A stretch of DNA of 64,000 nucleotides, from contig OY735203.1 of NCBI GenBank assembly GCA_963457665.1, positions 23,052,906 to 23,116,905 on the forward strand, given 5' to 3'. The notes under the pieces were generated by a model, which worked only from the letters and a program-made list of their open reading frames with translations, was not told the DNA's origin and ran no database searches. Positions within the stretch are counted from its first letter, which is position 1. Each line of letters begins with the position of its first letter. Below are positions 25,620-42,965 of this stretch, piece after piece. The position numbers and the translations under genes are program-made. This stretch comes from Thysanoteuthis rhombus (taxonomy: Eukaryota > Mollusca > Cephalopoda > Oegopsida > Thysanoteuthidae).

Positions 25620-26300
25620 AACTAACTTACTAAAAACACTTCCCGGGCATTAAATCCTTATCCCCTGGAAATTCCATGGATGTATATTAACTATGAAGAT
25701 TATTGAGTTGATCTGAATACAATCATGGGAATAATTGATAAAAACAATAGGTATTACTGATAATATTGATTTCTAAAAAAAGAGCCCAACGATCTTTTTG
25801 CTATCGTAAAAATGCCTACGGACAAATTTTTTAGATATATAACCTAACAATTTCCCGGGTTATTTACCTACGTCTAACATTCTGTCGGTTGTTGTAGGGA
25901 TTTTTTCCTATTAGAACTAGCCCAGAGTTATAACATGATTCGTAGCTAGTTTTGAAGCCAGATTTTAAAGCCAGATTATTATTTTCAAGAGTAATAAGAA
26001 TATTCAATGAGGATGATTAATAAGGATAATTGTTATAGTAACAATAAATATTCATTTTTTATCATTGACTTAGAAGCAATTTCTGTGAAATCGTATACTA
26101 CCAACTATGGTACGCAGTTTCACAACTATAAGCCAACTCTTCCAAACTAATAGTTTGAATCAGTGTTTTCCCAATATATCTGACCTAACTGTGATTGAGG
26201 TGCAGGTCCTCGAGTTGCCAAGGGGAGTAATCTGTTTTCTTTTTTTTAACTTGAATTTATACTCAGTATAAGTTTTCTCTGTCTATTTTCTATATTTCCC
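25620..26300. other. Unassigned AT-rich DNA
   Basis: Possible further decayed minisatellite units to about 25680. Nothing else recognised. Confidence 0.45.
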
Positions 26301-26303
26301 AAG

Positions 26304-26365
26304 GCGGTTCGTCTTATCTCCACCTGCTTTTACCCCCAATTACTTTCGCGTTTGACAAAGATAAG
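26304..26365 (+). CDS. Candidate 62-nt internal exon
   Basis: A very strong acceptor (pyrimidine-rich tract ending TTTCCCAAG) and a good donor (GATAAG|GTATGA) bound 62 nt. Two frames are open: one entering in phase 1 (GSSYLHLLLPPITFAFDKDK) and one in phase 0. Function unknown, and there is no partner exon nearby with a matching phase. Confidence 0.4.
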
Positions 26366-26379
26366 GTATGAGTAATGTT

Positions 26380-26915
26380 TTTGCCTATTGGTTGGAGTCA
26401 TTTCTACAAGCCTGTTCTATCAGCCAGACCCATTGAAGCCATCCTGTCATTTTGAATCTTTTTTTGATGAGTTTATCTTTTTCTTTCTTATTCCACTAAA
26501 CGTAAAAAATGGAGATATAAAGAAGACATTTCACCTGAGGAGAAAGTTTTTCAGTCAAAAACGTTCATGTCTCATTGCGGTCTTCAATAATGGTCTACGA
26601 AGTTTAAGCAATCAACTCTACCTATAACTTCCCTTACACACGTCTGTGGATTCTATGAGCTGTGTTTTTTCTCTGTGGAATCTTCCGTTGGAGAAAAAAG
26701 TGAAGGATCAAAAATCAAATGTGAAATCAAATTCAAAATTCAAAGGCAGAGTGGAGAAAAGAAGAAAGAAAAACAACTTAACTGGGGTTGGGCAATAGTT
26801 CAGCAAGAAAATACGTATATTTTAGGCCATGATCAAGCAGACACCTTCCCCTTACCTGCAACATGATTTTGTTGGATAGTTCAATAACCACTACACAAAT
26901 AAACTTTATCGTTGA
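26380..26915. other. Unassigned DNA
   Basis: The frames at 26388-26627 and 26675-26866 lack splice support. Confidence 0.45.
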
Positions 26916-26918
26916 TAC

Positions 26919-26919
<1 letters not shown>

Positions 26920-26982
<63 letters not shown>
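26920..26982. repeat. (TA)n tract abutting SINE-like copy A
   Basis: A TA run ends directly at the 3' end of the minus-strand SINE-like element, in the position of a simple-repeat tail. Confidence 0.9.
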
Positions 26983-26983
<1 letters not shown>

Positions 26984-26985
<2 letters not shown>

Positions 26986-27212
26986 GTCATCCACAGACAG
27001 CTGTTCCAATGTATTACATCTCTTCAGTGTGGCTATAGACTTTCCATTATCCCATCCAGTACTGCGAGGTAGAATTGAAACTTTCAGTTCAGATCCGTAG
27101 GCCGATATCCTGCCTCTGGACTACGGAACTGGACAGGCAAAAATGCTGAATTTAAGCAATATATTTGAATTTCACAGAAATCCCTCATCCACCAGAGCGC
27201 TCAATTCCTATA

Positions 27213-27217
<5 letters not shown>
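26984..27217 (-). mobile_element. SINE-like repeat copy A (tRNA-type promoter, hammerhead)
   Basis: The minus strand contains an A-box match (TAGTCCAGAGG, plus 27112-27123) followed at tRNA-like spacing by a B-box-like GTTTCAATTCT (plus 27071-27081). A hammerhead fold follows near the 3' end (26985-27040). It is flanked on both sides by TA tracts. Related copies B, C and D occur at 27692, 27899 and 42788. The composition suggests a tRNA-derived, LINE-mobilised family of about 230 bp; the exact 5' end is uncertain. Confidence 0.75.
26985..27040 (-). ncRNA. Type I hammerhead ribozyme motif, copy A (one core lesion)
   Basis: Minus-strand order: GTC, TATAG, CCACA, core CTGAAGA, stem-loop II GATGTAATACATT, GGAA, CAGCTG, TC, TGTGG, AT, GAC. 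Helix I pairs CCACA with TGTGG, and GTC with GAC beyond an internal loop. Helix II pairs five base pairs around AAT. Helix III is the minimal CAG/CTG without a loop, and the cleavage site would follow TC. CTGAAGA matches the hammerhead consensus CUGANGA exactly. The GAAA box is GGAA (one change), so this copy is probably weak or inactive. Confidence 0.8.

Positions 27218-27300
<83 letters not shown>
27215..27300. repeat. (AT)n(GT)n compound microsatellite
   Basis: About 23 AT units followed by about 18 GT units. Confidence 0.95.
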
Positions 27301-27304
27301 TGTT

Positions 27305-27600
27305 GGGGTGAGTTCGTGCGTGTTTATGTGCTATATATGAAAGACGGTTGCTAATACTATCATCCATACAAATCCCTGATCTGAGCCGATAAATATTTAT
27401 AGAACAATGTATGCACTGGATAGAAACTGATTAAAGATTGATGAAAAAAAAGTTTGGCGTGAAGGCTCCAGAACAAGATGTCATATGAACGTTAACATGT
27501 TGGAGATCAACTGAGAAGAACAGAGAAAACTATACAAGATTTCTGCAAATTTCATGGATCAGTTTGTTCAGGTCTACCTATGAAGGAATTTCATCTCTCC
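27305..27600. other. Unassigned AT-rich DNA
   Basis: Nothing recognised between two microsatellite/SINE clusters. Confidence 0.5.
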
Positions 27601-27604
27601 CCCT

Positions 27605-27611
27605 CTCCCCT

Positions 27612-27692
<81 letters not shown>
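27605..27692. repeat. Palindromic (CT)n(AT)n(AG)n microsatellite
   Basis: CT units, a self-complementary AT core and AG units make a near-perfect palindrome that could extrude as a cruciform. SINE-like copy B starts at its right edge. Confidence 0.95.
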
Positions 27693-27695
<3 letters not shown>

Positions 27696-27826
27696 CATCC
27701 ACAGATGGCTGTATCGTTGTATTACAACTTTGTGCAACTGGACGGTCAGTAAGATTTAACATGAGTGATATATTTAATTAGCATATATTACCCATCCACC
27801 AGAGTGCTCTAATCATATGGAAGAGC
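27692..27826 (-). mobile_element. SINE-like repeat copy B, internally deleted
   Basis: It keeps the hammerhead 3' half (GTTGTAATACAAC, GATA, CAGCCA, TC, TGTGG) and the element's distal part (CTGGACGGTCAGTAAG on the plus strand, and ATCCACCAGAGTGCTCT). The segment with the helix I 5' strand, CTGANGA core and pol III boxes is missing. It is inactive. Confidence 0.7.
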
Positions 27827-27898
27827 GTTGCATAAGCTTTCAATGAACTAGTTACCTTACTAAAAAATTGCTCAACCTTGAATAGGGGAGTGTTAATT

Positions 27899-28038
27899 AT
27901 TGTCATCCACAGACAACTGTTTCGTTGTATTACAACACTTCACTGTGGCTATAGACTACCCATTATCTCATCCAGTACTACGAGGTAGGATTGAAACCTT
28001 TGCTTTAGGCCCGGTATCCTAGTTCTGCACTACTCCCA
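27899..28038 (-). mobile_element. SINE-like repeat copy C, truncated
   Basis: The hammerhead lies at 27901-27956, followed (towards the element's 5' side) by the B-box-like GGTTTCAATCC and a weak A box (TAGTGCAGAAC). The outermost 5' third seen in copy A is absent. Confidence 0.75.
27901..27956 (-). ncRNA. Hammerhead ribozyme motif, copy C (two core lesions)
   Basis: Same layout as copy A: GTC, TATAG, CCACA, core, GTTGTAATACAAC, GAAA, CAGTTG, TC, TGTGG, AT, GAC. Here GAAA is intact and helix II is perfect, but the core reads GTGAAGT instead of CTGAAGA, which changes the invariant first C and last A. It is probably inactive. Copy A has the intact CTGAAGA, so the two copies together reconstruct a canonical motif. 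Confidence 0.8.
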
Positions 28039-28039
28039 A

Positions 28040-28500
28040 CAAAAGGATATTTACACAAAGTACAATAATGACAAAGTAAACGTATAAGAAAATCACTAGA
28101 GAAAATTACATAAATTACCTCAACGGGCAATGGGAAATAAGTGACTGAAATGACACAAAAATATTTTTGAAGAGATTACTCGTTGTATAGTGGTTAAAGC
28201 TGTAATTATTTCTAGACTATATATTAAATGTTCATTTGACAATGAAGAAAAGGAAAATAACATTTTTTTTTTTTGCAACATTTTTTTTACATTATTGAAT
28301 GTGTTTGACAATTTCTTCGGAGAACCTTATCCATACCTCAAACTGTAACTCAGACATGAACGTAACAAAATAACATCGCTTCAGTCCAAATTTGACGGCC
28401 ACCTTTGATGTGGAAATTACTAATGCTGAAGATGAATACATGGATTCACAATTTTCATAACAATATTTTTCAAAGTTGCTTGAAGGACTTCCGTTTAGTA
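28040..28500. other. Unassigned AT-rich DNA
   Basis: No gene or repeat recognised. Confidence 0.5.
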
Positions 28501-28518
28501 TTTAAACTGTAGTGTGTG

Positions 28519-28583
<65 letters not shown>
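28519..28583. repeat. (TA)n tract
   Basis: About 30 TA units. Confidence 0.95.
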
Positions 28584-28587
<4 letters not shown>

Positions 28588-28937
28588 GAATCAAGACAGA
28601 ATTTTGTGTTGTAAATTCTATAATGCATATTAGTGCAAGTAGATTTGAGTTATATTTTTATTCTTATTCTATTTTAGCTCATGAAGACTTCAAATGAATA
28701 AACACTCAAAAAATTCAATACAACTATTTATCAATATTCTCCAACTTCAATGTAAACTTATTTCCTATCTTTAGCCAAATTGTCATTAGATAAACGTTGT
28801 GAAACACATTAAGCAATGATATCAATATTTATTGAACACTTGTATTCACTGTTTTGGCTTCGATGGAATAATTACCGATTCGATTGTGATAGCTGATCGA
28901 TTATTTGAGATGAATGTCTTATTCCTATTTTTTGCAG

Positions 28938-29056
28938 ATCTTATCGGTACACCACTTAATAGACTGTAACTGTTTTGTGTCGAGGATCCAAATAAAACGA
29001 CTCGTCCACCTAATATGTTTATCTACTCCACCGGATTTTGCAAGAAAAAAACGTAG
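28938..29056 (+). CDS. Candidate internal exon, unknown product
   Basis: A strong acceptor (CCTATTTTTTGCAG) opens a single frame of 39 codons, beginning ILSVHHLIDCNCFVSRIQIK, before a donor-like GTAG|GTGATC. The other two frames contain stops. It is basic near the end. No domain is recognised and no partner exon was found. Confidence 0.35.
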
Positions 29057-42787: not shown

Positions 42788-42965
42788 TTGTGTCATCCAA
42801 TCACAGCTCTTTTGTTAAATACTCGATATCCCTTCCAGTACCACTCGATGAGATTGGAAGCCTTTGCAGCTGACCAGCCCCTTCCCTGCGCAAAACTGGA
42901 CAGTCAGTAGGACCGAATTAAGTGACATATTTGGTAATGCATAATTACCCTCTAGCAGAGTTAGA
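42788..42965 (-). mobile_element. SINE-like repeat copy D, eroded
   Basis: Plus-strand blocks TGTCATCC, CCAGTACCACTCGATGAGAT, ACTGGACAGTCAGTAGGAC and ACCCTCTAGCAGAG align in order with copies A and C. The hammerhead is almost entirely lost. Only the distal GGATGACA and a GAGCTGTGATT remnant of the cleavage region remain. Confidence 0.65.

What the first reader, a model, noticed from the sequence alone, without database searches (positions are those of the whole stretch)
26985..27956. Type I hammerhead ribozyme embedded in a SINE-like repeat
On the minus strand two copies (26985-27040 and 27901-27956) show the full hammerhead order: helix I (CCACA/TGTGG, extended by GTC/GAC past an internal loop), a CTGANGA core, a 5-bp helix II, a GAAA box, a minimal CAG/CTG helix III and a TC cleavage site. 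Copy A has a perfect CTGAAGA core but GGAA. Copy C has perfect GAAA but GTGAAGT. Their lesions do not overlap, so the family consensus is a complete canonical motif and the active master element should exist elsewhere in the genome. Hammerheads with a minimal helix III are known from Penelope-like elements and retrozymes, and a SINE hammerhead is known in schistosomes (Sm-alpha). The helix II and core here do not look like the Sm-alpha sequence as I remember it.
Basis: partly seen in the sequence, partly recalled or inferred. Interest (0 to 1): 0.88.

Follow-up and report, generated by a model that had tools for sequence, protein, structure and literature searches.

The report
Hammerhead ribozyme in squid SINE-like repeat
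Thousands of copies of a short jumping repeat, in what is most likely a squid genome, carry a self-cutting RNA motif at one end; it is a new case of a known kind of ribozyme-bearing mobile element, and the cutting itself has not been tested in the laboratory.

Summary
On the minus strand the window has two near-complete type I hammerhead motifs (26986-27040, 27902-27956) and a damaged third (27694-27743). They belong to a ~311-nt dispersed repeat; a strict 32-nt pattern occurs 8,901 times genome-wide, its mirror control 0 times. Both main window copies are broken in the core, but the family consensus is a complete hammerhead and identical copies exist. Between subfamilies defined without the ribozyme, only two ribozyme columns vary, and they are one compensatory pair; the body varies more (p 0.007 at the cut first chosen, 0.02-0.11 at neighbouring cuts). 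The motif was probably kept by selection. Copies are mostly dispersed monomers with a 3' end about 16-18 nt beyond the cleavage site, usually beside (TA)n (135 of 160); partial dimers occur. Copy ends rarely fall at the cleavage site, so cleaved linear monomers are not the usual template; circles or uncleaved RNA remain. A tRNA-Arg-like segment is only suggestive. The host is a cephalopod, most likely a squid. Best filed as a new variant of metazoan retrozyme/SINE-hammerhead elements. Cleavage is untested.

The parts
26983..27214 (-). Copy A of the element, 5'-truncated: unit position 92 through the hammerhead to +13 past the cleavage site; flanked by (AT)n on both sides
   Evidence: alignment to the 311-nt unit, score 389; (AT)n arrays 26921-26982 and 27215-27260
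26986..27040 (-). Hammerhead of copy A; core CTGAAGA intact, GAAA box mutated to GGAA
   Evidence: R1 model 84.5 bits (this copy is one of the model's 115 training rows); sequence
27736..28033 (-). Copy C/B: end of one unit (unit pos ~182 on, with the hammerhead of copy C), unit junction, and about the first 165 nt of the next unit
   Evidence: alignment across the junction, score 296 to subfamily A and 387 (27736-28028) to subfamily T
27902..27956 (-). Hammerhead of copy C; GAAA and GTC intact, core mutated CTGAAGA to GTGAAGT
   Evidence: R1 model 79.3 bits; sequence
27694..27743 (-). Hammerhead remnant of copy B, core partly deleted; end of the second unit of the same element
   Evidence: R1 model 33.3 bits; 27692-27729 aligns to unit pos 285 to 12

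Best explanation
This is a non-autonomous, SINE-like retroelement of a squid, ~311 nt per unit, whose RNA carries a type I hammerhead ribozyme at its 3' end. Shown here: the ribozyme is complete in the family consensus; between subfamilies it differs only by one compensatory swap in helix II, while the body differs more. Shown here: copies mostly have a 3' end 10-22 nt beyond the cleavage site followed by (TA)n, scattered 5' ends with a drop at one unit length, and a minority run into a second unit. Inferred: the RNA self-cleaves at GTC|TGTGG, probably best when two motifs pair through the palindromic helix III. Inferred: ligation of the cleaved units, or read-through multimers, supplies the template. 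Inferred: a reverse transcriptase from another element primes that template at a (TA)n tract within ACACAATAATTAATGC and copies it about once around.
For: 8,901 strict hits against 0 mirrored. Body-defined subfamily consensuses, loci chosen by the whole copy left out: ribozyme variable at 2 of 53 columns, body at 35 of 203, Fisher p 0.007 at cut 0.16 (36 of 204 and p 0.006 with those loci). The two variable columns are partners: in the 100 listed exact hits, whose pattern left them free, A-T 52, T-A 44, all else 4; 24 of 104 distinct rows show the double change. Divergence in the ribozyme is 0.62-0.65 of that in the body within subfamilies (bootstrap 0.51-0.75). Rfam aligns both motifs of dimer L085 over the full Hammerhead_1 model, though below threshold (17.6 and 17.3 bits). 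29 of 32 body-selected copies end at +10 to +22. (TA)5 lies within 40 nt 3' in 135 of 160 loci with such an end, against 66 of 1,999 background windows. Only 6 of 68 copies exceed 325 nt.
Against: No cleavage assay or RNA data. The between-subfamily p-value is 0.02, 0.04 and 0.11 at cuts 0.15, 0.17 and 0.18; 0.16 was my first choice. Nearest-neighbour folding prefers another hairpin: -15.8 against -7.0 kcal/mol for the monomer hammerhead and -40.0 against -29.9 for the dimer. Covariation supports helix II only, and the rival hairpin shares helix II. Copy ends do not cluster at the cleavage site (1 of 68 5' ends within 2 nt). Rare variants shared between units of seamless dimers are 16 against 6.4 expected (each counted twice), and gapped pairs show the same excess, 10 against 4.9, so identity at birth is not shown. 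The palindrome is intact in 64 of 97 copies chosen without the ribozyme. Rfam scores stay below its cut-off.
Confidence: 0.77

Rival explanations
1. A conventional SINE with an inherited hammerhead that no longer matters: linear, uncleaved RNA is copied from its 3' end by target-primed reverse transcription; dimers come from rearrangement or tandem source loci, and the ribozyme looks conserved because source elements are few.
For: A fixed 3' end, 5' truncation and a drop at one unit length are textbook SINE behaviour. Ends rarely fall at the cleavage site. Most copies are not much longer than one unit: 25 of 183 loci have a contiguous copy of 400 nt or more, and junction-selected loci inflate that. 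At coarse cuts the between-subfamily conservation is not significant.
Against: In every cut tried the only variable ribozyme columns are one compensatory helix II pair, and divergence within subfamilies is lower in the ribozyme.
Confidence: 0.3
2. A true non-LTR retrozyme replicating through circular RNA: cleavage at both ends of a unit, ligation to a circle, and reverse transcription around the circle starting in the AT-rich stretch annealed to (TA)n.
For: Unit size (311 nt) and GC (43 percent) fall within the published range for metazoan retrozymes (PMC7229834: abstract, part 1 of section 3 and passages seen). Nearly all 3' ends need an intact or re-ligated cleavage site. 5' and 3' ends can fall in the same AT-rich stretch: 11 of 68 5' ends at unit positions 8-21. 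Unit junctions without a gap over 4 nt: 11 of 19 adjacent pairs outside the junction-selected loci.
Against: No circRNA evidence. Long tandem arrays, usual for retrozymes, were not seen: 1 of 183 loci has a contiguous copy over 2 units, and that one is cut by the edge of the fetched stretch. Sharing of rare variants within dimers is inconclusive.
Confidence: 0.45
3. Chance resemblance in a repeat: a conserved hairpin of other function, for example the -15.8 kcal/mol alternative fold, that happens to contain CTGANGA and GAAA.
For: The alternative fold is the predicted minimum and is paired in 93.5 percent of cells, like the hammerhead (92.9 percent).
Against: The full hammerhead core, the GTC cleavage triplet and the three-helix order are present at once in the consensus. 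Unpaired core columns are at least 90 percent conserved except the G of GAAA (that G follows a C, and CpG decay is my reading), which a plain hairpin does not need.
Confidence: 0.08

Closest known systems
Metazoan non-LTR retrozymes (Cervera and de la Pena 2020, PMC7229834, abstract, part 1 of section 3 and passages seen; review PMC7761336, passages seen)
   Same: Type I hammerhead in a low-GC non-coding repeat of about 150-400 nt, thousands of copies, often a weak helix III suited to dimers, some tandem copies.
   Different: Mostly dispersed, 5'-truncated monomers with a 3' end in (TA)n rather than tandem arrays; possible tRNA-like segment, whereas the review says retrozymes do not seem to harbour promoters (a search listing, names a plant retrozyme LTR with a promoter); circRNA untested. 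A term search of the 2020 main text finds no octopus or squid.
Sm-alpha SINE-like elements of schistosomes (Ferbeyre 1998, as cited in PMC8490949, passages seen)
   Same: SINE-like element of about 335 bp with a type I hammerhead.
   Different: Host phylum differs; sequence relationship not tested here; the original paper is not held.
Penelope-like elements with minimal type I hammerheads (as described in PMC7761336 and PMC6155905, passages seen)
   Same: Short helix III, thought to cleave as dimers; a candidate source of the reverse transcriptase.
   Different: A 311-nt unit has no room for a reverse transcriptase; no autonomous relative could be looked for (the GIY-YIG search did not complete).
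Hammerhead_1 loci in the giant squid genome (PMC6962438, passages seen)
   Same: Also a cephalopod; 235 Hammerhead_1 loci listed among non-coding RNAs.
   Different: Given as a count only in the passages seen, no element described; whether they are this family is unknown, and the copies scored here fall below Rfam's cut-off.

Membership tests
Hammerhead ribozyme, type I (RF00163) | Core CUGANGA ... GAAA and a UH cleavage site | tested here: met
   Consensus of 115 rows, 97 from loci chosen without the ribozyme and 18 by the whole copy; core pattern intact in 14 of 28 body-selected and 30 of 69 junction-selected usable stretches
Hammerhead ribozyme, type I (RF00163) | Three helices with helix I open-ended | tested here: met
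   92.9 percent of cells paired; helix II covaries; helices I and III are conserved but almost without double changes
Hammerhead ribozyme, type I (RF00163) | Rfam gathering score (34 bits) | tested here: not met
   17.6 and 17.3 bits in L085, 16.0 in L028; no Hammerhead_1 row for L030
Hammerhead ribozyme, type I (RF00163) | Self-cleavage | not testable with these tools
   needs an assay
Metazoan non-LTR retrozyme | Type I hammerhead in a repeat of about 150-450 bp with GC under 50 percent | tested here: met
   311-nt unit, GC 43 percent
Metazoan non-LTR retrozyme | Tandem units, dimers to large multimers | tested here: inconclusive
   Adjacent unit pairs without a gap over 4 nt: 25 of 27 in junction-selected loci (biased by the pattern), 11 of 19 elsewhere; only 1 of 183 loci over 2 units
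Metazoan non-LTR retrozyme | Expressed as circular RNA | not testable with these tools
   no RNA data
tRNA-derived SINE | tRNA-related region with pol III A and B boxes at the 5' end | tested here: inconclusive
   tRNA-Arg-like segment at unit pos ~181-246, internal not 5'; against a recalled tRNA-Arg 11 of 1,000 shuffles reach the score of subfamily T and 85 of 1,000 that of A; the other tRNA tried, a Thr, gives none. Rfam tRNA 19.2 bits in L085 (cut-off 29), no tRNA row in L028 or L030. ARAGORN default 0 of 113 copies; at 80 percent 27 of 113 (17 sense in the segment) against 10 of 113 shuffled; at 70 percent 74 against 61
tRNA-derived SINE | Fixed 3' end with short tandem tail, 5' truncation | tested here: met
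tRNA-derived SINE | Target-site duplications | not tested
   (TA)n flanks make them hard to read
Sm-alpha SINE | Sequence homology outside the ribozyme | not tested
   no Sm-alpha sequence was at hand
Penelope-like element | Reverse transcriptase with or without GIY-YIG endonuclease | not tested
   genome search for PF01541 did not complete

The most novel reading that the evidence does not exclude
A hybrid of tRNA-SINE and retrozyme in squids: a tRNA-derived internal promoter lies between two hammerheads, so that tandem source copies make their own unit-length circular RNAs. A foreign reverse transcriptase then copies these about once around from (TA)n microsatellites, leaving tens of thousands of dispersed copies.
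Probability: 0.2. Interest if true: 0.75.

Novelty: new variant of a known kind. Interest (0 to 1): 0.5.

Why it matters
It extends hammerhead-bearing retroelements to a very abundant cephalopod family that Rfam thresholds miss in the loci scored. If the strict-pattern rate in loci chosen without the ribozyme holds (24 of 115 spanned stretches), 8,901 strict hits mean roughly 40,000 ribozyme-bearing copies; this is a rough figure. The copies record what happened to the RNA: the ribozyme was kept, yet integrated ends mostly avoid the cleavage site, which makes the role of cleavage and circularisation in transposition directly testable.

Tried and rejected
Cleaved linear monomer as the usual template: rejected, because few copy ends fall at the cleavage site: 1 of 68 5' ends within 2 nt; 3' ends within 3 nt of it 0 of 32 body-selected, 0 of 16 whole-copy and 4 of 69 junction-selected loci. 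Identity at birth of the two units in dimers as proof of a circle: inconclusive. A cluster of 5' ends at 13-16 in junction-selected loci (17 of 70) is not used, since the search pattern starts at unit position 15. Clear tRNA derivation: not established. Covariation to separate the hammerhead from the alternative hairpin: not possible, helix II is common to both. Rfam on 26000-29000 at permissive E-value: 67 matches, many of them miRNA models on simple repeats, no hammerhead. Literature (open-licence PMC only): 'hammerhead ribozyme' with octopus, 1 paper in listing, not read; with squid, 2 papers in listing, not read, neither title relevant (the phrase misses the giant squid paper, which came); the mixed mollusc search shows no hammerhead paper in its first 20 of 5,523. 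Ceph-SINE: 8 papers in listing, passages of one seen (PMC7708342); the original (Akasaki 2010) was not seen, so identity with a described squid SINE is not excluded.

Mended: my 'body' class of 40 loci held 8 chosen by the whole copy, so counts were redone; the clustering p-value was shown at four cuts, and confidence was lowered from 0.80 to 0.77 for that; the seamless-junction count was split by how loci were chosen; 5' ends at 78-85 are 13, not 12.

Full report
Observation. The window lies in a 2.73-Gb genome (contig C6 of 514). Reading the minus strand shows the two motifs at the stated places. A covariance model of the family scores them 84.5 and 79.3 bits, with a third copy, its core partly deleted, at 27694-27743 (33.3 bits) and nothing else above 13.6 bits in 64 kb (copy A, as L001, is among the model's 115 rows). 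Copy A is truncated at unit position 92, with (AT)n on both sides. Copies C and B are one element crossing a unit junction.

Family. A 32-nt pattern with eight free positions has 8,901 exact hits and none for the same pattern read backwards. I fetched 188 loci of the family: 16 found by the whole copy, 32 by the body without the ribozyme, 70 by a pattern at the unit junction and 70 by the ribozyme pattern (classes counted). In some searches the class called 'body' also holds 8 of the whole-copy loci. Two subfamilies differ at 27 of 311 consensus positions (grouped there by the helix II pair). Of the ribozyme regions spanned in body- and junction-selected loci, 24 of 115 match the strict pattern (8 of 37 and 16 of 78; stretches of odd length count as not matching), so the true number of ribozyme-bearing copies may be about 40,000. 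This is rough, since those samples favour certain subfamilies.

Selection on the ribozyme. To avoid circularity I clustered units using body columns only. With 104 units (17 of them from loci found by the whole copy) and a cut of 0.16, four clusters of at least four members resulted (79, 8, 7, 5; five singletons dropped); 2 of 53 ribozyme columns vary among their consensuses against 39 of 237 body columns (p 0.009), or 36 of 204 without the columns fixed by the junction pattern (p 0.006); the three T-like clusters alone give 0 of 53 against 20 of 204 (p 0.008). Of 162 55-nt body windows tested (beyond the pattern columns), none has fewer than 5 variable columns. Leaving out the whole-copy loci (87 units): 2 of 53 against 35 of 203, p 0.007. 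At cuts 0.15, 0.17 and 0.18 p is 0.02, 0.04 and 0.11, so the significance depends on how finely subfamilies are cut. At every cut the only two variable ribozyme columns are the same helix II partners: A-T in one subfamily, T-A in the other or others. In the first 100 listed pattern hits, which left this pair free, it is A-T 52, T-A 44, T-T 1, A-A 1, G-T 1, C-T 1; a pattern for the A-A mismatch has 114 hits genome-wide. Single copies decay: divergence is 4.8 percent in the ribozyme and 7.3 percent in the body (unit position 100 on) for A (79 copies), 7.5 and 12.2 percent for T (25 copies); the ratio is 0.65 and 0.62 with bootstrap limits within 0.51-0.75. I read this as selection on source elements.

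Structure. Rfam's Hammerhead_1 aligns over its full length in L085 (twice) and L028, but at 16.0-17.6 bits it is below the cut-off of 34; in L030 no hammerhead row appeared. Energy models favour another hairpin. The pair counts support helix II only, and the rival fold shares it. The case for a hammerhead rests on the core nucleotides and the cleavage triplet being conserved together. The palindrome ACAGCUGU is intact in 64 of 97 usable stretches from loci chosen without the ribozyme; it fits cleavage as a dimer, as reported for other weak-helix-III type I motifs (PMC7761336 and PMC7229834, passages seen).

Copy anatomy. 3' ends sit at +10 to +22 past the cleavage site in 29 of 32 body-selected, 16 of 16 whole-copy and 51 of 69 junction-selected loci; 4 of the 69 lie within 3 nt of the cleavage site. 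With a slightly softer alignment 160 of 183 loci have a 3' end at +8 to +24 with flank held, and (TA)5 follows within 40 nt in 135 of these. On the 5' side it is 91 of 174, and in background windows 66 of 1,999. Among 68 distinct ribozyme-selected loci (70 fetched, two duplicates dropped) 52 copies are shorter than 300 nt, 10 are 300-324 and 6 are longer; one 5' end lies within 2 nt of the cleavage site, 11 lie at positions 8-21 and 13 at 78-85, and 3 abut a run of N. Of 46 adjacent unit pairs 36 join without a gap over 4 nt; 25 of 27 are in junction-selected loci, where the pattern favours this, and 11 of 19 elsewhere. One of 183 loci has a contiguous copy over two units. Integration thus mostly uses RNA in which the cleavage site is whole: uncleaved or re-ligated. 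A circle primed in ACACAATAATTAATGC would explain why both ends can fall in the same stretch, but sharing of rare variants between units (16 against 6.4 expected in seamless pairs, 10 against 4.9 in gapped pairs, each counted twice) does not prove it.

tRNA-like part. Unit positions ~181-246 resemble a tRNA-Arg. 11 of 1,000 shuffles reach the better score, but the tRNA was recalled and picked after the fact, and a tRNA-Thr from the genome does not match. ARAGORN at default finds none in 113 copies. I treat it as a lead.

Host. 52 molluscan haemocyanin domain matches were found, and none in 14 control genomes. One exon matches chain 6r83_1a at 492 bits and 4yd9_A at 493 bits in one functional unit, against 314-316 bits for the best unit of 8trz and 3j32. 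That 6r83 and 4yd9 are squid haemocyanins is recalled. With nearly fifty large contigs (C48 is 30.5 Mb) this points to a decapodiform cephalopod; the species is not known.

Known work. Retrozymes and Sm-alpha are the same kind of thing; the squid element differs in copy anatomy and perhaps in its promoter. The giant squid paper lists 235 Hammerhead_1 loci without, in the passages seen, describing an element. My paper searches covered open-licence PMC text only.

Noticed in passing
G000:C25:56607734-56625492 (outside the window): Nine haemocyanin domain matches about 2.18 kb apart with identical score and open-frame length, suggesting a tandem array of near-identical haemocyanin exons, or an assembly artefact.
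   Followed up: no
unit positions 78-85 of the element (many loci): A second cluster of 5' ends at TTATGCAATGCTC, 13 of 68 copies, often directly after (TA)n; microhomology or a reverse-transcriptase stop.
   Followed up: no
L044:1445-1495, L056:1444-1495, L073, L077: Some copies have small deletions at or spanning the cleavage site (for example GAAA joined to TGACAC), seen by eye; possibly imprecise ligation, but the pooled deletion profile shows no clear peak there.
   Followed up: partly
window 42827-42961: Weak match (score 52) to the body of the element, subfamily T, minus strand; perhaps an old fragment without the ribozyme.
   Followed up: no
L003:2581-2663 (-): A genuine-looking tRNA-Thr gene with extra sequence between its anticodon and T arms or an intron.
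   Followed up: no
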